A stretch of 53,716 bases of DNA from Candidatus Saganbacteria bacterium (GTDB lineage: Bacteria > Margulisbacteria > WOR-1 > O2-12-FULL-45-9 > XYB2-FULL-48-7), in assembly GCA_016939335.1 (NCBI GenBank), contig JAFGHC010000033.1, positions 1 through 53,716 on the forward strand, written 5' to 3'. Below the pieces are notes generated by a model. It did not search any database and was not told where the DNA came from. It saw only the letters and a program-made list of their open reading frames with translations. Each line of letters begins with the position of its first letter. Within the stretch, counting starts at the first letter, position 1. The position numbers and the translations under genes were made by a program. This document shows positions 2,172 through 52,543 of the stretch, one piece after another.

Positions 2172-2199
2172 ATTGTAGCACAAAAAAAGAAAAAGTGAA
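2172..2199 (-). promoter_or_regulatory. Possible sigma-70-type promoter for the minus-strand sugar unit
   Basis: On the minus strand TTCACT (2194-2199), a 16-base spacer, then TACAAT (2172-2177). The -35 is a 4/6 match to TTGACA and the -10 is a 5/6 match to TATAAT. The -35 overlaps the -35 of the plus-strand sigma-28-like site at 2196. The expected transcription start falls on the ATG at 2165. The poly-A/T surroundings make chance matches easy, so confidence is low. Confidence 0.35.
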
Positions 2200-2223
2200 A
2201 TTTTAGGCGGGGCCGTTCGACAA
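2196..2223 (+). promoter_or_regulatory. Sigma-28-like promoter (TGAAATTT-N12-TTCGACAA)
   Basis: Copy 1 of 14. The -35 half is perfect; the -10 half is the weakest of the set (CGACAA rather than CGATAA). The start codon at 2241 lies 17 bases after the element. Confidence 0.6.
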
Positions 2224-2240
2224 ATAGGCGGGTAAATAAT

Positions 2241-3119
2241 ATGTTAGACAGTATCCGCTCAACCAGGTTTTCCATCAAAGCCGACACCGGCCGGCAGATC
2301 CCCTGCCACTGGGTCGTGAAGCCAAATGATAAACGTGATTTTTTCACTGACCGGGCGGGCTTGTCCGAGCTCCGGGAAAGTATCGCCCCGGCTTTCCGGG
2401 CAGCGGCCGGGATAGCCGATCTCAACCGGAGCGGTTTTCGCCTGACGGTCGATCTGCCTTGTCCGGAGCAAACCGAGATACATCTGGTCGCCGGCCAGGC
2501 CGCCCCCTGTCTTAACCCGCAGGACTGGCGCACAATAAAATCCACCACCTGGGACCCGCAAGCTCCCCTCTCTTTCCATGAAGCCTGGATCGAAGCGGCC
2601 GGCCGGCGTCAGGAGGCGCTCGCTCCCGGCGGCCGCCGCCTTTTCTATGCCGAAGGAGAATACGATTTTTTCGGTCTGCAGGACGGCGATCCCAAAAGCG
2701 AAACGCATTTCATTATGCTTTCGGCCAAGCCATTCATCAATCTGTTTGACGGCGGGGTCACTTCCGAGCACTGGGCCAGATACTTCGGTTCCGCCGGGCA
2801 AATACTGCAGCGGCTTGGCTTGGCCGGCCAACCGGCCCGTTTAACGGCCAATTCCGGTTTCGCGTACCAGGCGCTGGCCCGCCTTCACCTGCATGTCCAG
2901 ACCGCAGCCCGCCCGCTGCCGAAATTATTCCCGCAGGATTACGGCTTTTTGGTCGACGCGGAGGGCGTGATCGAAGCCCCGGCCGGATCAGGACCGCATG
3001 CCAGAATTATTGGGTTGATCGACCAGAGAAAAGCGGTTGCGGGGAACGACCCAAAGGCGCCGGCCAAAAGACAGGCTCTTGATCAGCAGATCTTTTCAGC
3101 GCTGGAAAATATCGGCTAA
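2241..3119 (+). CDS. HIT-superfamily-like protein (GalT/FHIT-type fold)
   Basis: A 292-aa soluble protein. Residues about 185-220 run EHWARYFGSAGQILQRLGLA, then a strand with TANSG, then LARLHLHVQTA. This is the HIT layout: a helix ending in LGL, a strand with N-x-G, then the His motif. The motif here is H-L-H-V-Q, with Gln in place of the third His. That also occurs in the GalT branch (HPHPQ), where the middle His is the nucleotidylated nucleophile. An earlier segment (THFIMLSAKPFINLFDG) resembles the preceding HIT strand. HIT proteins hydrolyse or transfer nucleoside monophosphates. The gene is first in the co-regulated block and converges on the 3116-3967 gene, the two stop codons overlapping by three bases. 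Fold call moderate, substrate unknown. Confidence 0.6.
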   Translation: MLDSIRSTRFSIKADTGRQIPCHWVVKPNDKRDFFTDRAGLSELRESIAPAFRAAAGIADLNRSGFRLTVDLPCPEQTEIHLVAGQAAPCLNPQDWRTIKSTTWDPQAPLSFHEAWIEAAGRRQEALAPGGRRLFYAEGEYDFFGLQDGDPKSETHFIMLSAKPFINLFDGGVTSEHWARYFGSAGQILQRLGLAGQPARLTANSGFAYQALARLHLHVQTAARPLPKLFPQDYGFLVDAEGVIEAPAGSGPHARIIGLIDQRKAVAGNDPKAPAKRQALDQQIFSALENIG

Positions 3120-3967: not shown

Positions 3968-3977
3968 ATCTACATAT

Positions 3978-4005
3978 ATATCGCGAACTTTTCCGTAAGA
4001 TTTCA
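3978..4005 (-). promoter_or_regulatory. Sigma-28-like promoter, minus strand (TGAAATCT-N12-CGCGATAT)
   Basis: Copy 2 of 14 and the only one on the minus strand. It is back-to-back with copy 3, with two bases between the two -35 boxes. The start codon at 3967 follows after ten bases with no room for a Shine-Dalgarno site. Confidence 0.78.
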
Positions 4006-4007
4006 AG

Positions 4008-4035
4008 TGAAATGTCCGGGAAAAACAGCCGATAA
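4008..4035 (+). promoter_or_regulatory. Sigma-28-like promoter (TGAAATGT-N12-GCCGATAA)
   Basis: Copy 3 of 14. Its -10 half GCCGATAA is identical to the E. coli FliA consensus -10. Divergent from copy 2; together the two -35 boxes form a near-palindrome AGATTTCA-AG-TGAAATGT. The start at 4063 lies 27 bases downstream. Confidence 0.82.
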
Positions 4036-4062
4036 ACAAACAACGGGGGTCAGATAGTTACA

Positions 4063-5265: not shown

Positions 5266-5270
5266 CCATT

Positions 5271-6446: not shown

Positions 6447-6465
6447 CAACGCTAAACTACTCACC

Positions 6466-6493
6466 TGAAATTCTCCGCGGGAACTGACGATAT
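6466..6493 (+). promoter_or_regulatory. Sigma-28-like promoter (TGAAATTC-N12-GACGATAT)
   Basis: Copy 4 of 14. The -10 continues into TATATA. An ATG at 6496 lies too close to the -10 to be used, which moves the start of the next gene to 6511. Confidence 0.82.
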
Positions 6494-6510
6494 ATATGGT
6501 GAGAGAAACT

Positions 6511-7545
6511 ATGACCAACAATATTCTTGTCACCGGCCATAAAGGCTATTTGGGCAGCGTATTGACCAGCCTGCTGCTGAGGCGCAATTACCGCGTCAGC
6601 GGCGTGGACACGAACTACTTTCAAACAAGGCCGTTGCAGTGCCGGGGAGTGACGGAACAATTCAAGGACATCCGCAGCATCACGCCAAACAACTTCCGCG
6701 GGATCACGGCTGTCGCGCACTTCGCCGCCATTGCGGATGACTCCTCTTCCCAAATCGTGCCGGAAACGACCACTGACATTAATCTTGCCGCCACGCTGAA
6801 GCTGGCAACCATGGCCAAAAAAGCCGGGGTAGAAAGATTTGTTTTTTCCTCAACTTGCGGGGTTTATGGCAACACACTCGAAGGAACGCTTCTGACGGAA
6901 ACTTCACCCGTGCTTCCCAACAGCCCTTACACGGCCTCAAAACTGGAAGCAGAAAAAAGATTAACCGACCTGGCCGACAGCTCCTTTACCCCCATCTTCC
7001 TGCGCAACGCCACCGTCTTTGGCTGGTCCGACCGGAACCGTTTCGATTCGCCGGTGAACAACATGGCTTTCATGGCCGTCAGTCTGGGCAAGGTCAAACT
7101 GCGAACCAACGGCTTGTCCTGGCGGCCTGTAGTTCACGTGAACGATGTCGCCCGGGCTTTTTTGCTCGCTCTGGAAGCGCCCGCCGCCAGCGTCTGGAAC
7201 GAACTTTTCAACGTCGGCGCCAACGAACTCAATTTTCGCCTGATCGACATCGCCAACGCCGCCTGCACGGCAATCGGGGGCGGCACGCCGGAAACGGAGG
7301 AGGGCAAGGTTGCGACCTCGTCTTATGTCTGCGGCTTCTCCAAGATCAAGGACACACTCGGTTTTTCACCCCTCTGGTCACTGAATCGCGGCCTTGAAGA
7401 CATGATCAGGAAGATCAGAGAGAGCGGCAACCGCGCCACCCTCTTTAACCACAACAACAAGGCAATGAGGCACCTTCTGTCAACAGGAGAGATCGATTCT
7501 GGTTTTAGATGGCTCAAGGCCGGTGGAGAGGCAAGCGAAACGTGA
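6511..7545 (+). CDS. NAD-dependent nucleotide-sugar epimerase/dehydratase (extended SDR)
   Basis: A 344-aa extended short-chain dehydrogenase. Visible motifs in order: Rossmann glycine motif VTGHKGYLGS, active-site serine strand FSSTCGVYG, catalytic YTASK, then LRNATVFG and RPVVHVNDVA typical of GalE/RmlB-like enzymes. It would interconvert or dehydrate an NDP-sugar in the cytoplasm. The start is ATG 6511 (GAGAGA upstream), not ATG 6496, because the promoter -10 ends at 6493. Its stop overlaps the GTG start of the next gene (GTGA), so translation is coupled. The exact reaction cannot be read from motifs, but the context of four sugar nucleotidyltransferases supports sugar-nucleotide supply. 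Confidence 0.9.
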   Translation: MTNNILVTGHKGYLGSVLTSLLLRRNYRVSGVDTNYFQTRPLQCRGVTEQFKDIRSITPNNFRGITAVAHFAAIADDSSSQIVPETTTDINLAATLKLATMAKKAGVERFVFSSTCGVYGNTLEGTLLTETSPVLPNSPYTASKLEAEKRLTDLADSSFTPIFLRNATVFGWSDRNRFDSPVNNMAFMAVSLGKVKLRTNGLSWRPVVHVNDVARAFLLALEAPAASVWNELFNVGANELNFRLIDIANAACTAIGGGTPETEEGKVATSSYVCGFSKIKDTLGFSPLWSLNRGLEDMIRKIRESGNRATLFNHNNKAMRHLLSTGEIDSGFRWLKAGGEASET

Positions 7546-9878
7546 GAACAGCCACACCGAAGTTTTGCGTGGAGGTCGGCAAATTCGGCTTGATGAGCCA
7601 TCGAACGCCGGTCAGCCGGAGTCCGCTGGTCAAGCTGGCCGACGCCTTTGAGCTGAAGACCCCGCAGCGCCTGGCCCAGGTGCACGCCCTGCGGACCGGA
7701 ACAGCTGAAATGCGTGACAGCGAATCACGGCGACTGGCCGAGATCCTGGCCACGGGCAAAGAGATCACTTATCACGGCAACGGGATAATCGACGATCAAT
7801 TCACCGGGGATTTTGCCGCCGCCGGCCACGTGGCAAGGCTGGACCCGTCCGGGATCGGCTACACATCCTTCAGTATCGGTCCGTCTAACTTGAGAACGCT
7901 CCGGCGGAAGCATGATGAAATCGTTTTTGAAGGCGAGCCGCTCACGCGCGCCCAACTGTGGACGGAGATCGCCGACCGCCTGCGCACCCTGCGGTCGGGC
8001 TACCGCGGCCGGCTCGGCTTTGAGAACGAGGCTTACCAGCCGCGGGTCGCGCACGTGTTCGAGCCGGATTTCCTGACGGAGTTCTTCACCCGTCATCCCG
8101 ACACCCTCTTCCTGCTCGACCTCGCTCACGCCCGCGTCACCGCCAACTCCCTGGTGCTTGACCCGCTCGAATACTTCCGCGCCCTGCCGCTGAATAAGAT
8201 CGGTCATATACATTTGAGTCACCCCGCCTGGCTGATCGGCACCGGCCGGAACGAGCTTGCCTTACTTGACACGCACGAAGCCCCGCGCGAAGAGGACCTC
8301 GGCTACCTCGATCAGGTGCTCAGCCTGATGGGCCGGGTGCCGGAATATCTGACGATCGAATATTTCCGGAACGAGAGCCAGATGGTCGAGGCTTATCAGC
8401 GCGTCCGGCGGTTTTTCGAGCCGGCGCCAGGCAAAAGCCCGCTCGCCCGCGACTTCACCCTGCTGGAATTGAGCCTGCAGGCCGCGGAGGAGCGGATCGC
8501 CGCTCTGGGGCGCTACGACCGCGAACGGATCGCCGCGATCAACCGGGAACATATGACGGCCAAACAAGAAGCGATCTTCCAACGCTTGCTCGAAATTGAG
8601 GATAAACGCGGTCTTGTGACCGATTCTCCCAAAAACGTGGCGCTCCACACCACCAATGTCTTCACGGCGTACATTCAAGCCACGACCGCAACCTATGAGG
8701 ACCTGGCGGCGTCAAAAGATCATCATCAACTGGAAAGGTTATGCCTCTGCCAGGACCGTAAGAGGGTGGAAGCCAATCTGTCGCGGCTGAAAGCCAGCCT
8801 GACCCGCTACGCGCCGTCCATCTGGCATTTGCTCATCAGCCGCCACGACGACGGCAAAGTCATCAGCGCCCCGCTTCATGAACGCGAAACCGGAGCGCTG
8901 GACAGAAAATTCGGACTGCTGGACAAGCCGGCTTTCGCACGGTTAACCGCCAAAGAAAAAATCCTGCTGGCCGAACTGATGGAACACCATACCAATCTCG
9001 GGACCACTTATGTCGGAGATAATTCGATGCTGATCTTTAAAGAGGTCTTTGGCTGCCCGCGCCTGAGAAAGCTGCTGGAAGGGCCGAAAGGCAAGATCGA
9101 CCTTGCGGCGGTCCGAACGCTCCTGGATCTGTGGGCGGCTTTTACCTGCCTCGACGCCAGCGGATTGGGCCCGAAAGGGATGCTGACCAATTCCCGCCTG
9201 GAATACTATTATCAAACGACTGCTGATTTTTACGATGTCTTCGAAAGGAACGCGACCAATTATATTGCTGCGCTGACCGAAATAGAAACTTACGCTCAAG
9301 GCAGTTTCCTGGCGCGCTTGTGCGAGATCATGGTCTCTTTTGATGCCAACGGCGACAGCAAAGTCCTGCCCTGGGAAAAGGACCTTTCCCATTTTAGCTT
9401 CTATCTGCAAAATATTGAGGCCGCCCTGGCCGGGCTGACGACCCGGGGAGAGATCACCGGCGCCGATTGGGAAGAACTGCGGAATACGTTTCACCAGATC
9501 ATTGAATTGCCCTATATCGCGTCCTGGTATAGCATCGCCTGGTCTAACCCCGGGGTAGATAAAAATTCCCCGCAGGCCGACGCCACGCTCTATGACGGCT
9601 TCCTGAAATATTTGATGCTACTTAACAAAGCGGGGCGCGGCTGCCGGGAAATCTGCGTGATCAAAGGCAAAGGCGCAGAGGTCATCCGCTCGGCGGATGC
9701 GCTCGACGACTTTCTGCCGCAGCTCCGCCCGGTGATCGACCGGGCCCGGGGCTTAATCACCGAGACGGGAAAGACCTATTTTGCCGACGGCAGCGGGCGG
9801 GCGATCGGCCGCAGTCCGGTCATGTTCCGGCAGGGAACGACGCTGTTCGTCGACCTGTCGCCGGCCAGGCCGGCCTGA
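7542..9878 (+). CDS. DUF692/MNIO-like TIM barrel fused to an HD-like domain
   Basis: A 778-aa fusion. Residues about 5-285 follow the order of conserved residues of the DUF692 family (multinuclear non-heme iron oxidative enzymes such as MbnB and TglH): His78 in EITYHGNG, Glu161-Asn162 in LGFENEAYQP, Asp193 and His196 in LLDLAHARVTA, His222/His224 in GHIHLSHPAW, Asp243 and His245 in LLDTHEAP, Glu273 in LTIEYF. A sugar-phosphate isomerase of the xylose-isomerase-like superfamily is the alternative reading. Residues about 330-760 are helical and carry an HD-like set: His435-Asp436 (SRHDDGK), His482-His483 (MEHHTNLG), Asp538 (TCLDAS). The start is GTG 7542, overlapping the epimerase stop, with GGAGAGG upstream; ATG 7509 lies inside the epimerase gene and is less likely. 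No candidate RiPP precursor was identified beside it. Confidence 0.65.
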   Translation: MRTATPKFCVEVGKFGLMSHRTPVSRSPLVKLADAFELKTPQRLAQVHALRTGTAEMRDSESRRLAEILATGKEITYHGNGIIDDQFTGDFAAAGHVARLDPSGIGYTSFSIGPSNLRTLRRKHDEIVFEGEPLTRAQLWTEIADRLRTLRSGYRGRLGFENEAYQPRVAHVFEPDFLTEFFTRHPDTLFLLDLAHARVTANSLVLDPLEYFRALPLNKIGHIHLSHPAWLIGTGRNELALLDTHEAPREEDLGYLDQVLSLMGRVPEYLTIEYFRNESQMVEAYQRVRRFFEPAPGKSPLARDFTLLELSLQAAEERIAALGRYDRERIAAINREHMTAKQEAIFQRLLEIEDKRGLVTDSPKNVALHTTNVFTAYIQATTATYEDLAASKDHHQLERLCLCQDRKRVEANLSRLKASLTRYAPSIWHLLISRHDDGKVISAPLHERETGALDRKFGLLDKPAFARLTAKEKILLAELMEHHTNLGTTYVGDNSMLIFKEVFGCPRLRKLLEGPKGKIDLAAVRTLLDLWAAFTCLDASGLGPKGMLTNSRLEYYYQTTADFYDVFERNATNYIAALTEIETYAQGSFLARLCEIMVSFDANGDSKVLPWEKDLSHFSFYLQNIEAALAGLTTRGEITGADWEELRNTFHQIIELPYIASWYSIAWSNPGVDKNSPQADATLYDGFLKYLMLLNKAGRGCREICVIKGKGAEVIRSADALDDFLPQLRPVIDRARGLITETGKTYFADGSGRAIGRSPVMFRQGTTLFVDLSPARPA

Positions 9879-9900
9879 CCCAAAGTTACGGAAAATAAAC

Positions 9901-9928: not shown

Positions 9929-9970
9929 TAAGGCGGAACCGGAAACGGCCAAGAAAGGGGAATGATCTTT

Positions 9971-11257: not shown

Positions 11258-11264
11258 CCGGCCG

Positions 11265-11293: not shown

Positions 11294-11321
11294 TGAAATT
11301 TCTGCCATTTCCTGCCGAAAT
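11294..11321 (+). promoter_or_regulatory. Sigma-28-like promoter (TGAAATTT-N12-GCCGAAAT)
   Basis: Copy 6 of 14. Perfect -35, one mismatch in the -10 (CGAAAT). It lies 53 bases before the start at 11375, with AAGGGAGAG as ribosome site. Confidence 0.75.
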
Positions 11322-12856: not shown

Positions 12857-12878
12857 AAATGAAAAGGGGGGATAAAAC

Positions 12879-14311: not shown

Positions 14312-14339
14312 TGAAATTTCTCCCCATTTTTGTCGATAT
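14312..14339 (+). promoter_or_regulatory. Sigma-28-like promoter (TGAAATTT-N12-GTCGATAT)
   Basis: Copy 7 of 14, among the best matches. The -10 runs on into TATATA. It lies 44 bases before the start at 14384. Confidence 0.85.
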
Positions 14340-31956: not shown

Positions 31957-31957
31957 A

Positions 31958-37368: not shown

Positions 37369-37373
37369 CTCAA

Positions 37374-39275: not shown

Positions 39276-39281
39276 ATTTAT

Positions 39282-41351: not shown

Positions 41352-41353
41352 AG

Positions 41354-42524: not shown

Positions 42525-45500
42525 GAAGCAAGAAGTTAGAAGTGAGAAGTAAGAAATTCATAGCTTTGGTCATCGCCCTTTTAGGGCTGGTCGTTCTGGC
42601 CGGTGCGGCCCAGGCGATCACCACCGATGTGCCGGCCAACTCCGTCGTTAACCCGGTCAGCAACACTCTCTACGTCGTCAATAACGGCGCGCCGCGGATC
42701 GACGTTTACAAGGCGAGCGGCAACTGGACGAACAGCGGGACCACCCCGATCACTATCCCGGCCGGCTCCCAGTGCTACGGCCTGGCCGTTTCGGCCGACG
42801 GGACCAAGCTCTACGTCAGCCTCGCCGCCGGCTCTTTATCCAAGACCAGCGTTTACAGTTTGGACAGCAACGGCCTCCCCACCGGTTCCGTCGACCTGAC
42901 CAAGCCCGACGGCAGCGCCGTCTACTGGTCGAGTTCTTCCGCGCCGGGCGGCCTCGCGCTGGGCGGCGACAACAAACTCTTCGTCGCCGACCAGGGCGTC
43001 AGCTGGTTCCGCGTCTTTGACACCGCCAGCAATACCTGGCTGAAAAACGTGAACGTGATCGATCCCGGGACCGGACAGGGGGTAAACAACCTTTACTCGA
43101 TCGCGGTCACGCCGGGGACTACCTCATATAAGATCTACGTCGCCCGCCGGTCAAGTGCGGGCGCGATCTACGTTTACACCTACAACGCCGGAACGATCAG
43201 TTATCTTAGGACGATCACCGGGTTAACCTATCCGACTTACATGAAAGTGGTTAACGGCGAGTTGTTCGTGGCGGTCAACGGGACTAACGGGATCGATGTT
43301 CAGGTCTACAATACCAGCAACGATACTCTGGTCGGCAACGTGATGAGCGGCACCGTCGGCAGCTACGGCTGGACGGCGTTCGACGTCAGCGCCGACGGGG
43401 CCTGGCTCCTCTTCAAGAAGGCGGCCGACCCGAATGAAGCCAACAACTACGTCTACAAGATCATGGTCTCCGCCATCAGCGGCAACGTGACCGCCACCAA
43501 GGTCACGCAGATCGACAATATCATCAACCCGCCCAATCCCGGCAACGTGATCGCCTGCGACGGCCTGATGATCTCGACCACGCAAGCCAATGTCGGCCTG
43601 GCCAACAGCCCGAACGGCAATTTCCTGCAGATCTACAGCAACATCGTCGACCAAGCGCCCAACCCGCCGTCCAATCTCCAGCAGTACAAGCTCGACGGGG
43701 TCACCCCGATCGCCAAGGGAGGCGGCACCTACGAAAACGGGATCGTCTGCAAATTCACCGTTACCGACCCCGACAGCCCCACCATCATCCCCAGTGTTTT
43801 TTACGGCCCGGTCGGCGGGGTGGGAACGCGGGTGACCGGTCCGGCGGCCGCTTCGGGCAGCACCGTCTCGATCACGATCCCGGCCTCCGGCAGTCTCGCC
43901 GCGGGCGCGTATGAATGGTCGGCCCGGGCCGATGACGGCACCTACGTCAAGGATACCGCTTTCGGCGCCGACAGCGGCGCGGCCGACTTTGTGGTCAACA
44001 TCCCCGCGCCGACCGTTGCCTCTATCACACCGAACACCGGCGCCCAGAACACGCTGGTCACGATCGACAACCTCGCCGGGACCAATTTTGTCTCCGCCAC
44101 CACCGTCAAGCTGACCCGCGCGGGGCAGTCCGACATCACCGCGACCGGCGTCAACGCCGTGTCCGCAAACAAGATCACCTGCTCGTTCAACCTGTCCGGC
44201 GCGCAGCTCGGCGCCTGGAACGTCGTTGCCACCAATCCCGACGGCCAGTCGGGGACGCTGACCAACGGCTTTACGGTCACCGCCCAGGCGCCGATCATCA
44301 CCGGCATTACGCCGAACTCCGGCACGCAGGGAACAACTGTCGCCATCACCAATCTTTCCGGCCTTTATTTCGCCGCCGGCGCGGCCGTCAAGCTGGCCAA
44401 CGGCGGCAGCGTCATCAATATGTCGGGGATCAACGTCGTCAGCGCGACGCGGATCACCGGCTCGTTCGCCATCCCGGCCAGCGCCACGCCCGGCTACTGG
44501 GCCGTCGTCGTCACTAACCCCGACGGCCAGTCGTTCACCTATAGCGGCGGTTTTATTGTCAACGCCACCACCCCGGCGCCGGCCGTCAGCGGCCTGACGC
44601 CGAATTTCGGCGCCCAGGGCTCGACCGTCAGCATCACCAATTTGGCCGGGTCGGGCTTCGTTTCCGGGGCGACCGTCAAACTGACCAACGGGTCAAGCGT
44701 GATCAACGCGACCAACGTCACCGTGGCCAGTTCGATCAAGATCACCTGTTCGCTGGCCATCCCGGCGAGCGCTCCGGCCGGCTACTGGACCGCCGTCGTC
44801 ACTAACCCCGACGGCCAGACCGGCTCTTTGGCTGGCGCCTTCAACGTCACCGCCACGCCTCCGCCGGCGATCACCACCACCAGCCTCCCTAACGGGACCG
44901 TCGGCTCCGCCTACGGCCAGACGCTGGCGGCCAGCGGCGGCACCGCCCCTTACACCTGGTCGATCACCGCCGGCTCGCTGCCGGCCGGCCTCACGCTTAA
45001 CGCCGCGACCGGCACGATCGGCGGTGTGCCGACGACCGCCCAGACGGCCAACTTTACCGTCCAGGTAACCGACGCCGCCGGCCGGACCGCTTCCACAACT
45101 TTATCGCTGACGATCCTCGGCCTGCCGCCGGCGGTCTCCGGAATTACGCCGAACAGCGGCGCCCAGGGCGCCACCGTCAATATCACCAACCTGGCGGGGT
45201 CGAATTTCGTCCCCGGCGCCGCCGTCAAACTGACCAAAAACGGCAGCATGATCGCCGCGACCGGCGTCAGCGTGGTGTCGCCAGCCCAGATCACCTGTTC
45301 GCTCACTATACCGGCCGACGCCGTGATCGGTTACTGGAATGTCACCGTCACCAATCCCGACGGGCAGTCGGGCACCCTGGGCGGGCTCTTCAAAATCACC
45401 GCCAAGGTCTCTGCCCCGACGGTCACCGGCATCACACCGAACAGCACCAACGAGGGCTCGACCGTCAATATCACCAACCTGGCGGGAACTGGCTTTGTTA

Positions 45501-48322
45501 CCGGCTGCGCCGTCAGTCTGACCAAGAACGGTGCCACGATCGCCGCGACCGGCGTCAGCGTCGTGTCTCCGGCCCAGATCACCTGTTCGTTCGCCATTCC
45601 GCTGGCGGCGGAGGGCGGCGCCTGGGACGTCACCGTCACTAACCCGGACGGCCAGTCCGGCACCCTGCCCGGCGGTTTCACCGTCAATAAAGCGCCCGCG
45701 CCGGCGGTCACCGGCATTACGCCGAACAGCACCAACGAGGGCTTCACTGTCAGCATCAGCAACCTGGCGGGGACAAATTTCGCTGCCGGCGCCACCGTCA
45801 AGCTGACCAAGAACAGCGCCACAATTGACGCGACCGGCGTCAACGTGGTTTCCCCGGCCAAGATCACCTGTTCGCTGGCCGTTCCCCTGACGGCGGAGGT
45901 CGGCGCCTGGGACGTCACCGTCACCAATCCCAACGGCCTGCCCGGCACCCTGCCCGGCGGTTTCACCATCAACCCCAAGCTGCCCGGCCCCACCATTGCC
46001 AGTATTGATCCGAACAACGCGGTGGCCGGCGGCAACGTCAAGGTCATCAATCTGGTCGGCACGAATTTCCTGGGCGGCGCGTCCGTCACGCTGACCAACG
46101 GCAGCAACAAGATCACCGCGACCGGCGTCAACGTGGCTTCGTCCTCATACATTTCCTGTAATCTGGCGATCCCGGCCGGCGCGGTACCCGGCAAGTGGAA
46201 CGTCACGGTGACCAACCCCGACACCCAGGCGGCGACCTTGAACAACGGCTTCACCGTCTACTCTCCGGGAACAGCGCCGACGATCTCGTCGATCACCCCC
46301 AGCACCGGCAAAACCGGCGAAGCTCTTACCGTCACGATCAACGGGACCTATTTCAGCTCCGGCGCGACGGCCAAGCTCGCGATGACCGGCCAGGCCGACG
46401 TGCCGATCACCATCACCAACGTCCTGGCGGCAAAGATCACCGGTACACTGGCGATCCCGGCGGGAACGCAGGCCGGCGCCTGGACGGTGCTGGTCACCAA
46501 TCTCGACGGGCAGACCGGCGAACTGGTCGACGGCTTCACGGTGACGGCGGGCGGAGTCAACACGATCACGCTGGTCTCGCCGAGCGGCGGCGAAAGCTGG
46601 GACACCCTTTCGCAGCACAATATCGCCTGGACCACGACCGGCGCGATCGCCAACGTGAAGATCGAACTTTCCACTGACGGCGGTTCCACCTGGTCGACGC
46701 TCCCCGGCGCCGCCAGCGTTGCCAACACCGGCTCCTGGCTCTGGACCCTGCCCAGCACGCCGACCACGCAGGGGCGCATCCGGATCAGCGATGTGGCGGA
46801 TCCGGCCGTTTCCGGCACCTCGGGCAATTTCACGATCGTCAGCAATCTCCCGGCGCCGACGATCGCCAGCATCGACCCGGACAACGGCATCGCGGGTAAC
46901 ACCGTGACCGTCGTCAACCTGATCGGCTCGAACTTTGTCACCGGCACGTCCGTCAAGCTGGTCAAAGGGGCGGCCGTTATCAACGCGATCAACGAGGTGA
47001 CCTACTCTCCGACCTACATCACCTGCCAGCTGGCGCTCCCGGCCACCGCCGAGATCGGCGACTGGAACGTGGTCGTAACCAACCCCGACGCCAAGTCGGC
47101 CACCAAGGCCAACGGCTTCCATATCTACGCTCCGTCGGCGCTGCCGCCGACGATCAGCTTGATCGCGCCGAACAGCGGCGCCCAGGGTGCGACGGTCGCA
47201 GTAACGCTGACCGGCACCAATTTCAACGCGGGCGCCACGGCCAAGATCGCCAAGACCGGGCAAACCGACATTCCGATCGTCATCTCGAACATCACGGCGA
47301 CCCAGATCACCGGTTCGCTGCAGATCCTGGCGGGAGCGCAGACCGGCACCTGGACGGTAATGGTCACCAATCCCGACACGCAGACCGGCCAGCTGGTCAA
47401 CGGGTTCACTGTGACGGGGGGCGGCACGGGCGCGGTCTCCAACGTCAATATCGTCCGCGACGGCGACACGTACGGTTCTTCGGTCACCGTGACCTGGCAG
47501 ACCGATCCGGCCAATACGGCGGTGGACGTCTACGCCAGGACCGGAGATTTCTCCACGACCGCGGGCAGCTGGACGAAAGCGGCGTCGGGTATTACAATAG
47601 GCACCTACACCGACAGCAACCAGGTGGGTAATGGCACCGCGAAGTACTACAAGATCATTCCGGCGGGTGCAACTTTGCAAAACAGCGATCTAACACAAGA
47701 TGTGGTTGGGAAGTTTGACCTCAACGCCGGAGGGAGCCCTGAACAATTCTTTATCTCCCTGCCGCTTATACCGAACTCATCCTCGCCAAATTCAGTTATA
47801 GGCGCCCAAGCAACAAACGGCGATGGTATTATGATCTTTGATATAAACAAAAGTGTTACTCAGGCCGTTCAGTGGAACGGAACAGCTTGGGTCGATTTCT
47901 TTAGCGGCGCTCCGTCAGACATGGAAATCTTCCCGGGTTATGCCTATGGGTATTTAACAACCACTAATAGATTTATCTCAATCGTTGGAGTTGTGCGCAA
48001 TGAAGCATCTTATTCCCGCACAATTACGGGCGGAGCAAATATGAGCAAAAACGATTGGATAGCTGCTCCCTATCCTGTCAGCATTCTTGTCACCAATGCT
48101 GGCTTAAACGATTCGACAGTCGGGTCAGATCCGACCAATGCCGGAACCCTCTATTTATTCGATATAAATGCAACCTGGTTGGAAGGAGCCGTTCATGATG
48201 GGGCTTCAACCTGGAAAGATGCGTTTACCGGCAATCCTTCTACAATGGTCTTGCAGCCTGGTAAAGGGTACATGTTTACAAATCCAGTGGATTTTACCTG
48301 GACAGTAAACAAGCCTTACTAA
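42521..48322 (+). CDS. Giant secreted protein: beta-propeller-like region, ten IPT/TIG repeats, Ig-like domains
   Basis: A 1,933-aa protein with a clear Sec signal peptide (LVIALLGLVVLAGAAQA, cleavage after AQA near residue 32). Residues about 35-400 are WD/NHL-like propeller repeats (SNTLYVVNNG, LYVSLAAGS, LFVADQGVSWF). About 500-1,640 hold ten IPT/TIG repeats, each opening with a variant of ITGITPNSG. They are interrupted by a putative Ig domain (LPNGTVGSAYGQTLAASGGT) and a domain opening with VSPSGGESW that resembles Kre9/KNH-type modules. A fibronectin-III-like segment and a lower-GC C-terminal module follow. Role inferred: cell-surface or extracellular adhesin/structural protein. It is the second gene of the 41445 unit. 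No cell-wall or T9SS sorting motif was identified at its own C-terminus. Confidence 0.85.
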   Translation: MRSKKLEVRSKKFIALVIALLGLVVLAGAAQAITTDVPANSVVNPVSNTLYVVNNGAPRIDVYKASGNWTNSGTTPITIPAGSQCYGLAVSADGTKLYVSLAAGSLSKTSVYSLDSNGLPTGSVDLTKPDGSAVYWSSSSAPGGLALGGDNKLFVADQGVSWFRVFDTASNTWLKNVNVIDPGTGQGVNNLYSIAVTPGTTSYKIYVARRSSAGAIYVYTYNAGTISYLRTITGLTYPTYMKVVNGELFVAVNGTNGIDVQVYNTSNDTLVGNVMSGTVGSYGWTAFDVSADGAWLLFKKAADPNEANNYVYKIMVSAISGNVTATKVTQIDNIINPPNPGNVIACDGLMISTTQANVGLANSPNGNFLQIYSNIVDQAPNPPSNLQQYKLDGVTPIAKGGGTYENGIVCKFTVTDPDSPTIIPSVFYGPVGGVGTRVTGPAAASGSTVSITIPASGSLAAGAYEWSARADDGTYVKDTAFGADSGAADFVVNIPAPTVASITPNTGAQNTLVTIDNLAGTNFVSATTVKLTRAGQSDITATGVNAVSANKITCSFNLSGAQLGAWNVVATNPDGQSGTLTNGFTVTAQAPIITGITPNSGTQGTTVAITNLSGLYFAAGAAVKLANGGSVINMSGINVVSATRITGSFAIPASATPGYWAVVVTNPDGQSFTYSGGFIVNATTPAPAVSGLTPNFGAQGSTVSITNLAGSGFVSGATVKLTNGSSVINATNVTVASSIKITCSLAIPASAPAGYWTAVVTNPDGQTGSLAGAFNVTATPPPAITTTSLPNGTVGSAYGQTLAASGGTAPYTWSITAGSLPAGLTLNAATGTIGGVPTTAQTANFTVQVTDAAGRTASTTLSLTILGLPPAVSGITPNSGAQGATVNITNLAGSNFVPGAAVKLTKNGSMIAATGVSVVSPAQITCSLTIPADAVIGYWNVTVTNPDGQSGTLGGLFKITAKVSAPTVTGITPNSTNEGSTVNITNLAGTGFVTGCAVSLTKNGATIAATGVSVVSPAQITCSFAIPLAAEGGAWDVTVTNPDGQSGTLPGGFTVNKAPAPAVTGITPNSTNEGFTVSISNLAGTNFAAGATVKLTKNSATIDATGVNVVSPAKITCSLAVPLTAEVGAWDVTVTNPNGLPGTLPGGFTINPKLPGPTIASIDPNNAVAGGNVKVINLVGTNFLGGASVTLTNGSNKITATGVNVASSSYISCNLAIPAGAVPGKWNVTVTNPDTQAATLNNGFTVYSPGTAPTISSITPSTGKTGEALTVTINGTYFSSGATAKLAMTGQADVPITITNVLAAKITGTLAIPAGTQAGAWTVLVTNLDGQTGELVDGFTVTAGGVNTITLVSPSGGESWDTLSQHNIAWTTTGAIANVKIELSTDGGSTWSTLPGAASVANTGSWLWTLPSTPTTQGRIRISDVADPAVSGTSGNFTIVSNLPAPTIASIDPDNGIAGNTVTVVNLIGSNFVTGTSVKLVKGAAVINAINEVTYSPTYITCQLALPATAEIGDWNVVVTNPDAKSATKANGFHIYAPSALPPTISLIAPNSGAQGATVAVTLTGTNFNAGATAKIAKTGQTDIPIVISNITATQITGSLQILAGAQTGTWTVMVTNPDTQTGQLVNGFTVTGGGTGAVSNVNIVRDGDTYGSSVTVTWQTDPANTAVDVYARTGDFSTTAGSWTKAASGITIGTYTDSNQVGNGTAKYYKIIPAGATLQNSDLTQDVVGKFDLNAGGSPEQFFISLPLIPNSSSPNSVIGAQATNGDGIMIFDINKSVTQAVQWNGTAWVDFFSGAPSDMEIFPGYAYGYLTTTNRFISIVGVVRNEASYSRTITGGANMSKNDWIAAPYPVSILVTNAGLNDSTVGSDPTNAGTLYLFDINATWLEGAVHDGASTWKDAFTGNPSTMVLQPGKGYMFTNPVDFTWTVNKPY
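44008..47420 (+). repeat. Ten IPT/TIG coding repeats (about 275 bases each)
   Basis: Units open near 44008, 44289, 44571, 45127, 45415, 45700, 45985, 46273, 46852 and 47140. Two non-TIG domains are inserted near 44860-45120 and 46560-46845. Repeats 4-6 are very alike at DNA level (GCGACCGGCGTCA followed by CAGATCACCTGTTC). Confidence 0.85.
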
Positions 48323-48850
48323 TAGAGGGGGAATGAAAATGATAAAAGTCAATCTACATAAGGGGGGAATGAGAAGCTGGAGCAAGCTATTTGCAATAGG
48401 CCTTGTATTGCTAATGGCAGCTGCGCCGGCTTTTGCTACTGCTGTAACCACTAATGCTTCACCAATCTATAATCATTTGGGCGCTCCTAATAATATTGGT
48501 GTTAATACTTTCTACCAAGTAATCCAGTCAACCAATGCTACAATTGACCCGCCTGATGCAAACGGCAATCCCACTGGAGACGATACTTTAGCAAACGTTG
48601 TCTATGGGGTCGCTACAGGTATAGGCCAGATTGCTATCGCAGGCCAGATTAGTGGAAAAAATTCTGATATCACTGCTGGCAAATATGTGTACATTAGAGT
48701 TTGGGAAGGGGCAACCTCCGCAGCTACAATTCCCACTAATGCAACTTATTATATCCAATCCACTCCGGCAAACGTTGGTACTGGATTTGTTATGACAGGA
48801 GGTTATAATCCAACCACTTTTACAGTTAATCCTGTTGGTAATACTCTAAC
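47640..48850 (+). other. Low-GC segment spanning a gene boundary
   Basis: Hand counts of five 60-base lines give 37-52% G+C (for example 22/60 at 48481-48540), against 63% at 46081-46140 and 65% at 49501-49560. Codon choice also shifts (AAT, ATT, TTA, GCT appear). The segment covers the C-terminal module of the 1,933-aa protein and the N-terminal module of the next. Confidence 0.75.
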
Positions 48851-50546
48851 CATCACCACGACCAGCTTGCCAAATGGCACGGCCGGCTCTTTCTACAGCG
48901 CGACTTTGCATGCCACTGGCGGGACAACGCCGTACACTTGGTCCTTGGCTTCTGGCGATTCGCTGGGGGCGGTTGGCTTGACGCTTAACGTAGCTACCGG
49001 TGTCATCTCCGGGACGCCGACAAGCGCGACTACTTTGAACTTTACAGTCCAGGTGGACGACTCGGCTTCTCATACCGCAACTAGACCTTTGTCGATTACC
49101 ATCAACACCCCCGGCACCAACAACCCGCCGGTGGCCGAGAGCCTTAATGTGACAGCTACTTCGGGAGTGACGACAACGATCACGCTCAAAGCAACTGATC
49201 CCGACGCTGGCGATACAATCGCCTCCTACGCAATTGTCGATCATCCGATCTACGGGACCGTCACGGTCAGCGGCAATCAGGCTACTTATACGCCGCCGAC
49301 TAACGGCTACACGGGCCTCGATCCATTCACCTATAAGGCGATAGACAACCACGGCGCTGAATCAACCCCCGCGACCGTGAACATTACCGTCACCGCCCCG
49401 ACCGCCATCGTCATCGACGACTTCGAGGGGGGCTGCGTCAAAACCAATGGTTACTATGTCTTCGAAAATTGCCAGGACATCACGCCGACCAACGAAAGCA
49501 TCAACTCGCAGCTCCGCAAGGGCGAGGCCAAGGACAACGGCAACTTCGGCGCCAAGGTCCGCTACTCTTACGTCGGCACCGACGGCTCCGACTGGGGCGG
49601 CGGCTGGGGCGCCCAGCTGATCAAGACGCTCGACCTCGAGCAGGCCAAGAGTATCACCATGAACGTGAAGTGGGACGGCTCGGACAACGACATGATCTTC
49701 TCGCTCAAGGACAGCGACGGCACAACGGTCAACGGCACCGTCGCCAACGCCACGCTGAAGGCCCTCGGCGGCTACGGCCAGATCACCATCGACCGGGCTA
49801 ACTTTGCCATCAACGACGCCGGCGCCGACAGCAGCTTCGACTGGGCCCAGGTCATCTCTTACAACTTTATCTTCAATACCAAGCTGACGACCAGCAACTA
49901 TATGTACCTCGACGACATCACCGCCCAGCTCGGCCAGGTCATCCCGCCGCTCTCGGGCAACACCATCTCGGTCTCGCCGAAGTCGGGCCCGGTCGGCACG
50001 GTCCTGACGATCAGCTGGGTCAAGGGAAATACTTTCGGCTCGTACCAGGGGAACAGCATAGTGATGTTCACCAATAAAGCGACCGGCGTGACTTCGGCCA
50101 ACGGCACGATCCTTTCCTGGAGCGAGACGCAGATCAAGGTCGTCGTCCCGCAGCTCGCCGCCGGCCAGTACGACGTCGCCGTCCGCGTCGCGCAGAGCGC
50201 CAGCGGCACGGTCCAGCCGTTCACCACCGACCCCGACACCTTCCAGGTGTACGCGGGCGGCGGGGCGGATACGCCGAGCATCTACCCGAACCCGTTCGAT
50301 CCGGGCAAGGAAACGGTGACGATCGCTTTGACCGACACCAAGGGGGCGAGCAACATCGATTACTACATCTATGATATGACGGCCCGGCTGGCCCATCGCG
50401 TGACGGGCGGCGGCACCCAGATCACCTGGGACGGCAGGGACCTCCAGGGAGGCCTGGCCGCTAACGGCGCCTATCTCGTCAGGATCGTTAACGCGGACAC
50501 CAGGTCGCTGATCGCCAGGGGCAAGCTCCTGGTCATCAGGCATTAA
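48339..50546 (+). CDS. Secreted multidomain protein ending in a FlgD-Ig-like C-terminal domain
   Basis: A 735-aa protein. The signal peptide is LFAIGLVLLMAAAPAFA, near residue 32. Then come an unrecognised low-GC domain, a putative Ig domain (LPNGTAGSFYSATLHATGGT), and a cadherin-like/Big domain (YTPPTNGYTGLDPFTYKAID). A CBM11/CIA30-like beta-sandwich follows (VIDDFEGGCVKTNGYYVFEN, later FSLKDSDG and YMYLDDITAQ), then an IPT-like domain. The C-terminus is YPNPFDPGKETVTIALTDTK continuing to ITWDGRDLQGG and ending LLVIRH, the FlgD-Ig layout used as a sorting domain by some surface proteins. The start at 48339 fits AGAGGGGGA at seven bases; ATG 48333 would be too close. Third gene of the unit. 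Confidence 0.8.
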   Translation: MIKVNLHKGGMRSWSKLFAIGLVLLMAAAPAFATAVTTNASPIYNHLGAPNNIGVNTFYQVIQSTNATIDPPDANGNPTGDDTLANVVYGVATGIGQIAIAGQISGKNSDITAGKYVYIRVWEGATSAATIPTNATYYIQSTPANVGTGFVMTGGYNPTTFTVNPVGNTLTITTTSLPNGTAGSFYSATLHATGGTTPYTWSLASGDSLGAVGLTLNVATGVISGTPTSATTLNFTVQVDDSASHTATRPLSITINTPGTNNPPVAESLNVTATSGVTTTITLKATDPDAGDTIASYAIVDHPIYGTVTVSGNQATYTPPTNGYTGLDPFTYKAIDNHGAESTPATVNITVTAPTAIVIDDFEGGCVKTNGYYVFENCQDITPTNESINSQLRKGEAKDNGNFGAKVRYSYVGTDGSDWGGGWGAQLIKTLDLEQAKSITMNVKWDGSDNDMIFSLKDSDGTTVNGTVANATLKALGGYGQITIDRANFAINDAGADSSFDWAQVISYNFIFNTKLTTSNYMYLDDITAQLGQVIPPLSGNTISVSPKSGPVGTVLTISWVKGNTFGSYQGNSIVMFTNKATGVTSANGTILSWSETQIKVVVPQLAAGQYDVAVRVAQSASGTVQPFTTDPDTFQVYAGGGADTPSIYPNPFDPGKETVTIALTDTKGASNIDYYIYDMTARLAHRVTGGGTQITWDGRDLQGGLAANGAYLVRIVNADTRSLIARGKLLVIRH

Positions 50547-50549
50547 AGG

Positions 50550-50577
50550 TGAAATCAATGAAAAAACTTAACGATAA
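50550..50577 (+). promoter_or_regulatory. Sigma-28-like promoter (TGAAATCA-N12-AACGATAA)
   Basis: Copy 13 of 14. It begins four bases after the previous stop. Its spacer contains an in-frame ATG (50558) that would otherwise be taken as the next gene's start. Confidence 0.75.
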
Positions 50578-50596
50578 ATATACGGGGCAGGAAACA

Positions 50597-52543
50597 ATGT
50601 CAAAATCCGAAACACGAAATACGAAATACGAAATCCTCTCTTTGGCAATTGGAATTATATTTGTCATTTGCCATTTGTCATTTGTCATTGCGCCGGCAGG
50701 CGCTGACACCGGCACGCTCTCCGACCCGATGACGATCGGCGTCGGCGCCCGCCCGCTCGGCATGGGGAAGGCCTACACCGCGGTGGCCGAGGACGGCGAC
50801 GCCATTTTCACCAACCCGGCCGGCCTGGCCCGCTCCGCCAGCCCGAAACTGACCAGCATGTACGCCTCGCTGATGGGCGACGTCAGCTACGTCGTGGTCG
50901 GCGGCGTCTATCCCTACGGCGAGAAGTCGGCGATCGGCGCCGGCTACATCGGCTCCGCGCTCGACGGCATCCCCCTGACCGACGCGAGCGGCGCGTCGCT
51001 GGGGAGCGGCCGCTGGGGAAGCAACGTCATGTTCCTCTCCTACGGCACTTACTTGAACGAACTCGGCATCATCAAGCTCGATCAGGACATCCTGATCGGC
51101 GCCAATCTGAAGTACTTCAGTTTGAGCGGCGGGGGCGGCTCGAACGAGGCGAACGGGACCGGCTATGACCTCGACCTCGGCGTCCTCTACCCGGTCAATC
51201 CTTACGTGATGGTGGGCGCCAATCTGCAGAACGCCCTGCCCGGCTCAATGGGGAAGATCACCTACGCCTCCGGGGCCGAGGACGCCATCCAGCACACGCT
51301 CAAGGTCGGCGCCAAGGTCAACCTGATCGGCGACGAGAACGCCCTGACCGCCTCCGAGGGCCGCCGGCTCTACGGCACCGCCGACTACGACTACAACTTC
51401 TCCCGGCCGAGCGCGACCCACTTCGGCCTTGAGTTCTGGCCGACCGCCAACCTGGCGCTGCGCGGCGGCATGGACGGCAGCGACCCGACCGCCGGCCTCG
51501 GCCTGCGCGTCTCGGGCGTCGAGTTCAATTACGCCTACCATCCCTATTCGCAGATCAGCGAGAACACCACCCATTACTTCTCGCTCGGCTACCTGGGCGA
51601 AGCGCGGAAGCGGCAGATCAATATCACGCTCGACGAGCCGAAAGACAAAGCGGTCATTTACGAGGACCATGTCAGGGTCAAGGGCCGGGTCCAGATCAAG
51701 GAAGGGGACGAGCCGGCGCCGAAGGGCCCGCTCTCGCTCAAGGTCAACGGCATTGACGTCGCCGTCGCTCCCGACGGCAGCTTCGCGATCGAAACGCCGG
51801 TCCAGAATTACGGCAAGAAGCTGGTGCAGGCCACGGCCGTTGACGCCGCCGGCAACTCCGCGCAGCGGGACGCGCGCATCGTCCGCCTGATCTCGTTCGC
51901 CGACGTCCCCGACGGCTACTGGGCCAAGATGCCGATCGAGAACAACGCCACCGTCGGTCTGGTCCAGGGATACCCCGACGGCAACTTCAAGCCGGACCGC
52001 GCCTTGAGCCGCGCCGAGCTGGCCACTCTGCTCGTACGCGCCAAGGGGATCAAGCTCCCCGAAGGGCGGGCGCGCCAGTCGTTCAAGGACGTCAAGCCCG
52101 ACTTCTGGGCGGCCAAATACATCGACGCGGCGCAGCGCGAAGGGCTGGTCCTCGGTTATCCCGACAAGACCTTCCGCCCCAACAACAAGATCAACAAAGT
52201 CGAAGGGATCGCCATCATGGTCCGTTTCGACCAGCTCAAGCTGGCGGAAGTCGACTCCAAGCCGTACTGGGACATCGCGACCAACCACTGGGGGGCCAAG
52301 TATGTCCAGGCGGCCAAGGAAGCCGGCATGTTGAGCTTCATCGAGCGCAACCGCCTGCGGCCGAAAGAGCAGCTGGCCCGCTCGGAATCGGTCGAGATGC
52401 TCGGCAAGACGGCGCTGGCCGGCGGCAAGATCAAGGACCTTTACACCTGGGAGAAGGGCTTCAAGCCGGAGCTGGAAAAACAGCCGACGATCAGAGGGAG
52501 TCTCGACAATTTGGCTGAAATTTCGGCCGGAAATTACCGATAA
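50597..52543 (+). CDS. PorV-like outer-membrane barrel with Ig-like domain and three SLH domains
   Basis: A 648-aa protein. The signal peptide is YEILSLAIGIIFVICHLSFV to about residue 38. Residues about 40-340 follow the PorV/UPF0164 pattern, opening with IGVGARPLGMGKAYTAVAED and then FTNPAGLARS, and continue as beta-strands. An Ig-like domain (about 350-430) follows. Then come three S-layer homology domains: FADVPDGYWA (near 433), FKDVKPDFWAAKYIDAAQRE (near 495) and YWDIATNHWGAKYVQAAKEA (near 555). SLH domains bind peptidoglycan-linked polymers in the periplasm, so the protein may tie the outer membrane to the wall. The start is ATG 50597: ATG 50558 lies inside the promoter spacer. The last ten codons double as the promoter of the next gene. 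Confidence 0.88.
   Translation: MSKSETRNTKYEILSLAIGIIFVICHLSFVIAPAGADTGTLSDPMTIGVGARPLGMGKAYTAVAEDGDAIFTNPAGLARSASPKLTSMYASLMGDVSYVVVGGVYPYGEKSAIGAGYIGSALDGIPLTDASGASLGSGRWGSNVMFLSYGTYLNELGIIKLDQDILIGANLKYFSLSGGGGSNEANGTGYDLDLGVLYPVNPYVMVGANLQNALPGSMGKITYASGAEDAIQHTLKVGAKVNLIGDENALTASEGRRLYGTADYDYNFSRPSATHFGLEFWPTANLALRGGMDGSDPTAGLGLRVSGVEFNYAYHPYSQISENTTHYFSLGYLGEARKRQINITLDEPKDKAVIYEDHVRVKGRVQIKEGDEPAPKGPLSLKVNGIDVAVAPDGSFAIETPVQNYGKKLVQATAVDAAGNSAQRDARIVRLISFADVPDGYWAKMPIENNATVGLVQGYPDGNFKPDRALSRAELATLLVRAKGIKLPEGRARQSFKDVKPDFWAAKYIDAAQREGLVLGYPDKTFRPNNKINKVEGIAIMVRFDQLKLAEVDSKPYWDIATNHWGAKYVQAAKEAGMLSFIERNRLRPKEQLARSESVEMLGKTALAGGKIKDLYTWEKGFKPELEKQPTIRGSLDNLAEISAGNYR
52516..52543 (+). 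promoter_or_regulatory. Sigma-28-like promoter inside the end of a gene (TGAAATTT-N12-ACCGATAA)
   Basis: Copy 14 of 14. The whole element lies within the last codons of the PorV-SLH gene; the final TAA of the -10 is that gene's stop codon. It lies 36 bases before the start at 52580, with GAGGAGG as ribosome site. Confidence 0.84.

What the first reader, a model, noticed from the sequence alone, without database searches (positions are those of the whole stretch)
2196..52543. One sigma-28-type regulon covering about 50 kb: 14 promoters with an invariant 12-base spacer
Fourteen 28-bp elements match TGAAA(T/A/G/C)xx-N12-nnCGATAT/CGATAA, and the spacer is exactly 12 in all. Start positions: 2196, 3978 (minus), 4008, 6466, 9901, 11294, 14312, 21864, 27023, 31515, 36382, 41354, 50550, 52516. 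Each sits 10-63 bases before a gene, and every transcription unit right of 2.2 kb has one. Seven have a -10 running on into TATATA. Read as GAAA-N15-GCCGATAT this is the FliA/SigD promoter, yet none of the genes is flagellar. Using a motility-type sigma factor for a surface or polysaccharide programme this large would be notable.
Basis: partly seen in the sequence, partly recalled or inferred. Interest (0 to 1): 0.92.

Follow-up and report, generated by a model that had tools for sequence, protein, structure and literature searches.

The report
Sigma-28-like regulon beside filamentless flagellum genes
Fourteen near-identical gene switches in this stretch of DNA belong to a genome-wide set of about sixty, apparently read by a flagellum-type control protein in a group of uncultured bacteria that keep flagellar export genes but show no gene for the filament protein or the motor's torque domain, so the machine may serve something other than swimming.

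Summary
The core TGAAAT-N16-CGATA occurs 57 times in the 1.53-Mb genome (control 1), with 57 of 76 spacing variants at 16. The genome is a Margulisbacteria/WOR-1 (Saganbacteria) MAG; all 31 class genomes searched have 9-189 sites (control 0-3). The -10 and register match sigma28; the -35 is GAAATTT instead of TAAAGTTT. The best candidate reader is a short (~195-aa) FliA-like sigma lacking a region-3 match, often just downstream of flhA, whose own operon carries the element in two lineages. The element also precedes rpoD in 19 of 21 class genomes examined. The class keeps FlhA (30 of 31), but Flagellin_N and FliG_C are in 0 of 31. Regulon first genes are mostly orphans (29 of 40 without Pfam; controls 2 of 20), and few were found shared with the nearest relative searched. 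Most likely this is a flagellum-linked sigma28-family regulon serving a non-motility programme, possibly export substrates. No transcript start, sigma binding or export has been measured; a second FliA-like sigma is not excluded.

The parts
2196..2223 (+). promoter element, degenerate -10 (CGACAA), 17 bp before the 2241 CDS
   Evidence: (29.1 bits)
3978..4005 (-). promoter element, strict; 10 bp before a sugar nucleotidyltransferase-like CDS starting at 3967
   Evidence: (35.1 bits)
4008..4035 (+). promoter element, strict; back to back with the 3978 element; unit 4063 (deaminase-like) and 5271
   Evidence: (36.9 bits)
6466..6493 (+). promoter element, strict; epimerase-like unit 6511-9878
   Evidence: 34.0 bits
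9901..9928 (+). promoter element, degenerate -10 (TGATAA); nucleotidyltransferase-like 9962-11257
   Evidence: (31.1 bits)
11294..11321 (+). promoter element, degenerate -10 (CGAAAT); nucleotidyltransferase-like 11375-14225
   Evidence: (32.8 bits)
14312..14339 (+). promoter element, strict; two ~1245-aa proteins without Pfam match 14384-21858
   Evidence: 46.2 bits
21864..21891 (+). promoter element, strict; 21912-26992 (orphan, then GH26-like)
   Evidence: 29.5 bits
27023..27050 (+). promoter element, strict; 1459-aa orphan 27077-31456
   Evidence: 43.2 bits
31515..31542 (+). promoter element, strict; 31582-36082 (124-aa and 1374-aa orphans)
   Evidence: 44.2 bits
36382..36409 (+). promoter element, strict, best match in the window; orphan, protein-kinase-like and PP2C-like genes 36457-41351
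   Evidence: 51.5 bits
41354..41381 (+). promoter element, strict; 41445-50546 (orphan, then two Ig-type surface proteins with signal-peptide-like N-termini)
   Evidence: 49.2 bits
50550..50577 (+). promoter element, strict; SLH-domain protein 50597-52543; an element also precedes its homologue in relative G003
   Evidence: 41.0 bits
52516..52543 (+). promoter element, strict, overlapping the 3' end of the SLH gene; orphan 52580-53563
   Evidence: 46.4 bits

Best explanation
The elements are promoters (extended -35 TGAAATTT; -10 tGcCGATAa with an A/T tail; fixed register) of a sigma28-family RNA polymerase sigma factor. The most likely factor is the short (~195-aa) FliA-like sigma without a region-3 match, encoded at C35:101-688(-) of this genome and just downstream of flhA in about half of its class and in nearly all other phylum loci examined. 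It autoregulates its operon where it has a promoter of its own; that operon also encodes small conserved proteins, one of them (~70 aa, next to the sigma) in the place where an anti-sigma factor would sit. It also transcribes rpoD and some sixty scattered genes, mostly of unknown family. The class retains flagellar export and rod genes but shows no flagellin and no FliG torque domain, so the regulon is a non-motility programme linked to that apparatus. SHOWN by sequence: the element, its excess, spacing and placement; its conservation at rpoD and at part of the sigma operons; the flhA linkage; the two family absences. INFERRED: that this sigma reads it; that the small protein is an anti-sigma; that products are exported.
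For: 57 strict genome hits against 1 control; 57 of 76 at spacing 16; logo with positions outside the search pattern T68 G66 C45 before CGATA and an A/T-rich upstream flank. E. coli sigma28 consensus TAAAGTTT-n11-GCCGATAA (passages of PMC2859248) has the same register. Two FliA/WhiG-like sigmas among four region-2 hits. All 31 class genomes have 9-189 sites, control 0-3; short sigma in 29 of 31, one of them a 51-residue piece. It lies 283-792 nt downstream of flhA on the same strand in 15 of 28 class genomes with both and 307-889 nt downstream in 11 of 12 loci from other families of the phylum (the twelfth stretch shows no flhA). Element upstream of the sigma: strict in 5 and TGAAAT-N16-CGA in 3 of 20 distinct class loci; strict in 4 and TGAAAC in 1 of 12 other-phylum loci, all five in family f14, between flhA and the first small ORF. 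In 5 of the 16 flagellin-type upstream regions printed, from G032, G037, G039, G045 and G047, I read TAAA-N15-ACCGA promoters; G037 and G047 (strict) and G045 (TGAAAC) have the other class at the sigma operon, so both classes coexist there. Element before rpoD in 19 of 21 loci; leaving out the one that came through a site search, 18 of 20. Flagellin_N 0 of 31, FliG_C 0 of 31, FlhA 30 of 31.
Against: No transcript starts, binding or in-vitro data. The classical FliA-like sigma (L011) is in 30 of 31 class genomes and is not excluded. G029 has the most sites (189) but no short-sigma hit, although its flhA ends 656 bp from a contig end; G008 (69% complete) has 28 sites and no hit. Family f10 has the short sigma with little excess of the element (1-10 hits, control 0-2). 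12 of 20 class sigma loci show no element within the sequence held upstream (900 nt; 229 nt in L053); 8 of these 12 sit behind flhA and could be read through, but G005, G010, G011 and G013 do not. No element in the flagellar stretch C4:62001-82000, so those apparatus genes are not in the regulon. The other flagellin-type upstream regions do not show a TAAA-type promoter to my eye. The 70-aa protein has no FlgM match among solved structures.
Confidence: 0.7

Rival explanations
1. The classical FliA-like sigma (L011, between flgJ and flgB in the flagellar operon) reads the element after its -35 preference drifted from TAAA to GAAA.
For: FliA/WhiG-type sigma (131.9 bits to TIGR02479, under its cut-off of 189.6), in 30 of 31 class genomes; canonical TAAA promoters are at background in this genome, leaving L011 without a known regulon.
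Against: No element near its operon. In the region-4 helix the short sigma has SESQVSRI, like the ESRVSQ of solved FliA and WhiG-type sigmas, and L011 has SRPKVCRL. In three f14 genomes TAAA-type flagellin promoters and a TGAAAT/C element at the short-sigma operon coexist.
Confidence: 0.18
2. An ECF sigma reads the element; TGAAAT-N16-CGATA also resembles SigW-type promoters (recalled from memory).
For: One ECF sigma in the genome (L010); the geometry is compatible.
Against: No element in the 3.2-kb L010 locus; the -10 extends to tGcCGATAa, the sigma28 form; the element sits at flhA-linked sigma28-like operons. Class-wide presence of L010 was not tested.
Confidence: 0.06
3. Same sigma, but a general growth-phase or stress regulon: rpoD control is the point, the orphan products act inside the cell or leave by Sec, and nothing is exported through the flagellar apparatus.
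For: rpoD is the most conserved target seen; epimerase- and nucleotidyltransferase-like enzymes are in the set, LacI-like proteins in G003 by eye; three window products carry signal-peptide-like N-termini; the apparatus cluster lacks the element.
Against: 29 of 40 first genes have no Pfam match against 2 of 20 controls; only 4 of 56 first-gene proteins have a homologue at the 30 G003 sites held; acid-poor N-termini; the sigma is tied to flhA across the phylum.
Confidence: 0.5
4. A dispersed repeat or transcription-factor operator rather than a promoter.
For: Many near-identical copies.
Against: Only the two boxes and A/T flanks are conserved, the middle varies freely; fixed spacing; orientation towards the gene in the window; spacer diverged but boxes kept at orthologous rpoD promoters.
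Confidence: 0.03

Closest known systems
E. coli FliA (sigma28) promoters, TAAAGTTT-n11-GCCGATAA (PMC2859248, passages)
   Same: -10 sequence and exact register; fixed spacer
   Different: -35 GAAATTT instead of TAAAGTTT; canonical TAAA form at background here; no flagellin found in the class
WhiG, a flagellar-clade sigma of actinobacteria; in Rubrobacter its predicted targets include a type IV pilus cluster (PMC8325347, passages)
   Same: sigma28-family factor working on non-flagellar genes, same -10 consensus
   Different: canonical -35 TAAA; the passages report 20 matches (12 shown) in one genome and 11 in another, found with up to two mismatches
Campylobacter jejuni Feds: proteins dependent on sigma28 for production and secretion (PMC5223770, passages)
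   Same: sigma28-dependent proteins that are not flagellar parts, leaving by the flagellar export system
   Different: a group of four in a bacterium with flagella; here dozens of genes, with no flagellin or FliG_C found, and export unproven
Lysobacter enzymogenes OH11, non-flagellated with a working flagellar export system without FliG (PMC9927559, passages)
   Same: retained export genes without filament or FliG
   Different: rod genes flgB and fliE lost there, flgB- and fliE-like genes kept here (by eye); the paper's text holds no mention of FliA

Membership tests
sigma28 (FliA) promoters | -10 GCCGATAA | tested here: met
   G66 C45 before CGATA and A59/T36 after, positions outside the search pattern; CGATA itself was in the pattern
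sigma28 (FliA) promoters | -35 TAAA at N15 | tested here: not met
   GAAA at N15 in all strict sites by construction of the search; TAAA-N15-GNCGATA 3 hits, control 5. Therefore described as sigma28-like, not filed as canonical
sigma28 (FliA) promoters | flagellin or motility genes among the targets | tested here: not met
   no Flagellin_N in 31 class genomes; no element in C4:62001-82000
FliA/WhiG sigma family (short sigma L012) | match to the FliA/WhiG model over its cut-off | tested here: not met
   best of 30 NCBIfam matches is TIGR02479, 69.7 bits, cut-off 189.6
FliA/WhiG sigma family (short sigma L012) | regions 2, 3 and 4 | tested here: not met
   Pfam regions 2 and 4 only, 195 aa; the L011 sigma also lacks a Pfam region-3 match
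FliA/WhiG sigma family (short sigma L012) | linked to flagellar export genes | tested here: met
   directly downstream of flhA in 15 of 28 class genomes and 11 of 12 other-phylum loci
flagellar type III export apparatus | FlhA, FlhB, FliPQR, FliI, FliF, rod | tested here: met
   FlhA 30 of 31; FliF and FliI over NCBIfam cut-offs and an FlgEFG-type protein in the own genome; rod/hook-type protein by PDB match in G002; FlhB, FliN, FliOPQR named by eye in L084/L086; the FliM-like protein had no PDB match at E 0.1
rotating flagellum | flagellin filament | tested here: not met
   Flagellin_N 0 of 31
rotating flagellum | FliG torque domain | tested here: not met
   FliG_C 0 of 31; a 155-159-aa FliG-like protein matches mainly the FliG N-terminal domain, E 1.8e-4 and 0.0014
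rotating flagellum | MotA/MotB stator | not tested
ECF sigma regulon | autoregulation of the ECF gene | tested here: not met
   no element in the L010 locus
type III secretion substrates | N-terminal export signal shown by secretion | not testable with these tools
   only composition: acid-poor first 30 residues

The most novel reading that the evidence does not exclude
A whole class of uncultured bacteria has turned its flagellum into a stationary protein-delivery machine, with neither filament nor torque domain. A short flhA-linked sigma28-like factor, gated by its own small anti-sigma, switches on rpoD together with dozens of fast-evolving exported proteins, the window being the densest cluster of them.
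Probability: 0.33. Interest if true: 0.92.

Novelty: new variant of a known kind. Interest (0 to 1): 0.78.

Why it matters
If right, it gives a sequence handle (a promoter of very high information content) on the whole regulon of a flagellum-linked sigma in an uncultured class related to the Cyanobacteria. It names testable substrates for a flagellar export system that probably cannot build a swimming organelle, and suggests how a flagellum can become a secretion device outside the known injectisomes. It also places the housekeeping sigma gene rpoD behind an alternative-sigma type promoter across a class.

Tried and rejected
Chance or repeat: rejected by spacing, control counts and the out-of-window matrix. 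ECF reading: considered first because of TGAAAC-N16-type promoters (recalled), disfavoured. Co-occurrence of sigma and element across the class does not discriminate, since both FliA-like sigmas are nearly universal. TGAAAT element before flagellin genes of relatives: not found in 24 loci (which listed only two weak CAAA/AAAA-type matches). FlgM match of the 70-aa protein: none (11 of the 15 sequences found were used). FliM-like protein against solved structures: none at E 0.1. All-against-all of regulon first genes: one weak paralogue pair. Rfam at gathering thresholds: no hits in the window. Literature on Margulisbacteria or Saganbacteria with flagella, type III secretion or related words: I saw listings only and nothing on this system in them; the genome paper PMC6349859 holds none of 'flagell', 'secretion', 'motil', 'sigma', 'pili', 'effector' in its main text (find only).

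Weak points of my own tests. Gene starts were chosen by script, and its gene caller missed genes. The N-terminal comparison tried 8 features in 3 windows; D+E in residues 2-31 was 0.068 (n=35) vs 0.110 (n=70), p=0.0039, which does not survive correction for 24 tests. It was lower again in proteins without a hydrophobic N-terminus (0.069, n=33, vs 0.122, n=61, p=0.0002) and in relative G003 (0.071, n=24, vs the same 70 control genes of the own genome, p=0.017). Kept there: 35 of 56 regulon genes (ATG start, clear ribosome-binding site, at least 100 aa). In the Pfam scan 40 of 45 non-window first ORFs were used; left out were rpoD (which would match), three ORFs of 58-74 aa and one implausible 77-aa ORF. 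The 11 matches include one ORF inside rpoB and one weak match at E 0.0045. The 20 Pfam controls were drawn at random from 49 non-window genes near the sites; downstream genes of regulon operons were not excluded, and one of the 20 is the short sigma itself. The window first genes were scanned at E 0.001, not 0.01. Only part of G003 (30 of 47 site loci) was compared. The 5 extra sites were scored with a matrix trained on the 46 strict sites of the same stretches.
Full report
WHAT IS THERE. The 14 elements exist as stated, each 10-63 bases before a coding sequence. A matrix trained on 46 strict sites outside the window recovers those 14 and nothing else above 12 bits; the reversed window gives none at 9 bits or more. 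Genome-wide the core TGAAAT-N16-CGATA has 57 hits against 1 for the reversed pattern, and the spacing is sharp: 57 of 76 hits with spacers from 8 to 30 are at 16. In 250 kb of stretches fetched round the sites the matrix adds 5 non-strict sites to the 46 strict ones, with none in the reversed control; with the three degenerate window sites this suggests a regulon of very roughly 60-75 promoters (inference). By my script's gene of 57 sites lie within a called gene, one of them only at its 3' end, and 55 of the 56 sites with an ORF pick have a start 0-100 bases downstream. The aligned sites show an A/T-rich flank, TGAAATTT, a free middle, and TGcCGATAw followed by A/T.

WHERE IT IS. The short sigma of this genome is 92, 87, 84 and 82% identical to proteins in four named WOR-1 / Margulisiibacteriota contigs, so the genome is a Saganbacteria (WOR-1) MAG (NCBI lineage), 94.9% complete by the tool's value. 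All 31 genomes labelled as its class have 9-189 sites against 0-3 control hits; the 43 other genomes of the phylum vary from 0 to 79; the 69 outside the phylum have at most 8.

WHICH SIGMA. Four sigma-70 region-2 proteins were found: RpoD, one ECF, a FliA-like protein in a flagellar operon (L011), and a short FliA-like protein with Pfam regions 2 and 4 only (L012). The -10 and the register are those of sigma28 (TAAAGTTT-n11-GCCGATAA, PMC2859248); the -35 differs, and the canonical TAAA form is at background here. L012 is in 29 of 31 class genomes (in G006 a 51-residue piece), L011 in 30 of 31, so presence alone does not decide. Three things favour L012. It lies 283-792 nt downstream of flhA in 15 of 28 class genomes with both and 307-889 nt downstream in 11 of 12 stretches from other families. 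The element stands upstream of it in 8 of 20 distinct class loci (5 strict, 3 with a reduced -10) and in 5 of 12 other-phylum loci, all of family f14 (4 strict, 1 TGAAAC). And in flagellated relatives 5 of 16 printed flagellin-type upstream regions show TAAA-N15-ACCGA promoters to my eye, none of 24 loci the TGAAAT form. Of the 12 class loci without the element, 8 sit behind flhA and 4 do not (one with only 229 nt held). In this genome the sigma operon's element overlaps TTGCCC-N17-TAAGCT, which looks like an RpoD promoter. Between flhA and the sigma lie small proteins; the one next to the sigma (~70 aa, invariant P-G-P-LR-W-F residues) was recognised in 15 of 20 class loci, in 7 of them overlapping the sigma start by 4 nt (alignment of 11). 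It is a candidate anti-sigma by position only (no FlgM match).

A CONSERVED TARGET. The element precedes rpoD in 19 of 21 class genomes examined, with boxes kept and spacer diverged; of the other two, one has a one-base change in the -35 and one a 17-base spacer. Nineteen of the 21 were taken from the RpoD-length matches listed without regard to sites (17 strict), the own genome came, and one (G003) came through a site search. Ten class genomes were not looked at.

THE APPARATUS. The own genome has FliF and FliI over NCBIfam cut-offs and an FlgF-type rod protein. Relatives have a block that I read as FliM-FliN-FliO-FliP-FliQ-FliR-FlhB-FlhA and one that I read as flgF-G-A-H-I-J-fliA-flgB-C-fliE-fliF-fliG-H-I-J (names by eye from order and sequence except where a call is cited; the FliM-like protein had no PDB match). 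FlhA is in 30 of 31. Flagellin_N is in 0 of 31, and in 8 of 70 when other phylum genomes are added, all outside the class. FliG_C is in 0 of 31; what remains is a 155-159-aa FliG-like protein matching the N-terminal domain (one also weakly the middle domain). MotA/MotB, hook and cap proteins were not searched.

THE TARGETS. Of 40 first genes outside the window 29 have no Pfam match at E 0.01; of 20 control genes 2 (Fisher p=5e-6). In the window 7 of 11 first genes at strict sites have none at E 0.001. The rest include kinase-like and PP2C-like genes, a deaminase-like protein, GGDEF, glycosyltransferase, AAA, LRR, ROK, phosphoribosyl-synthetase and PEP-utilising domains, several behind long N-terminal stretches. 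Only 4 of 56 first-gene proteins have a homologue within the loci of 30 of the 47 sites of G003, though its RpoD is 92% identical; the rest of G003 was not searched. N-termini are poor in acidic residues, and a hydrophobic, signal-like N-terminus is no more common than in controls (2 of 35 against 9 of 70). Against an export role: rpoD and metabolic enzymes are in the set, and three window proteins carry signal-peptide-like N-termini.

MECHANISM. Shown: a specific, conserved promoter-like class. Inferred with fair support: a flagellum-linked sigma28-family factor reads it and, in part of the lineages, autoregulates. Inferred with weak support: an anti-sigma gate, and export of products by a flagellum without filament and torque domain. 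The nearest precedents are WhiG, the Campylobacter Feds and the Lysobacter export system (passages only). No paper describing this in Saganbacteria appeared in the listings; the library holds open-licence papers only.

Noticed in passing
G000 C39:1182-1208 (L046) and G003 L140:1501-1527: A strict element followed within about 60-80 bases by a terminator-like hairpin and T run, without a plausible ORF between: possible sigma-dependent small RNA. The G003 locus aligns by DNA with own L013, where a protein gene follows the element instead.
   Followed up: partly
window 3978-4035: Two elements back to back, -35 boxes two bases apart, facing divergent genes.
   Followed up: no
window 7509-9878: 789-aa protein with an MbnB/TglH/ChrH (RiPP modification) match, E 8.6e-8.
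   Followed up: no
window 911-1789 (-) and 23294-26992: Two GH26-like proteins related to each other (27.5% over 247 aa); both match a protein in the G003 site locus L132.
   Followed up: partly
window 31958-36082 and 41445-42524: Both hold a short N-terminal stretch of the form FTP-x-PSP-x-x-C; another pair (52580 and L015:1591) shares PSLTLAAG near the N-terminus: possible short targeting signals.
   Followed up: no
G000 C13:4429-4455, at the 3' end of the gene before rpoD (dnaG by eye): rpoD is preceded by the element across the class; E. coli rpoD is recalled to have a heat-shock promoter inside dnaG, an analogous position.
   Followed up: yes
G029: 189 strict elements in 2.2 Mb, the largest set seen.
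   Followed up: no
G000 C23:17179-17205 (L027): A strict element inside the 3' part of an rpoB-like gene: chance, or an internal promoter.
   Followed up: no
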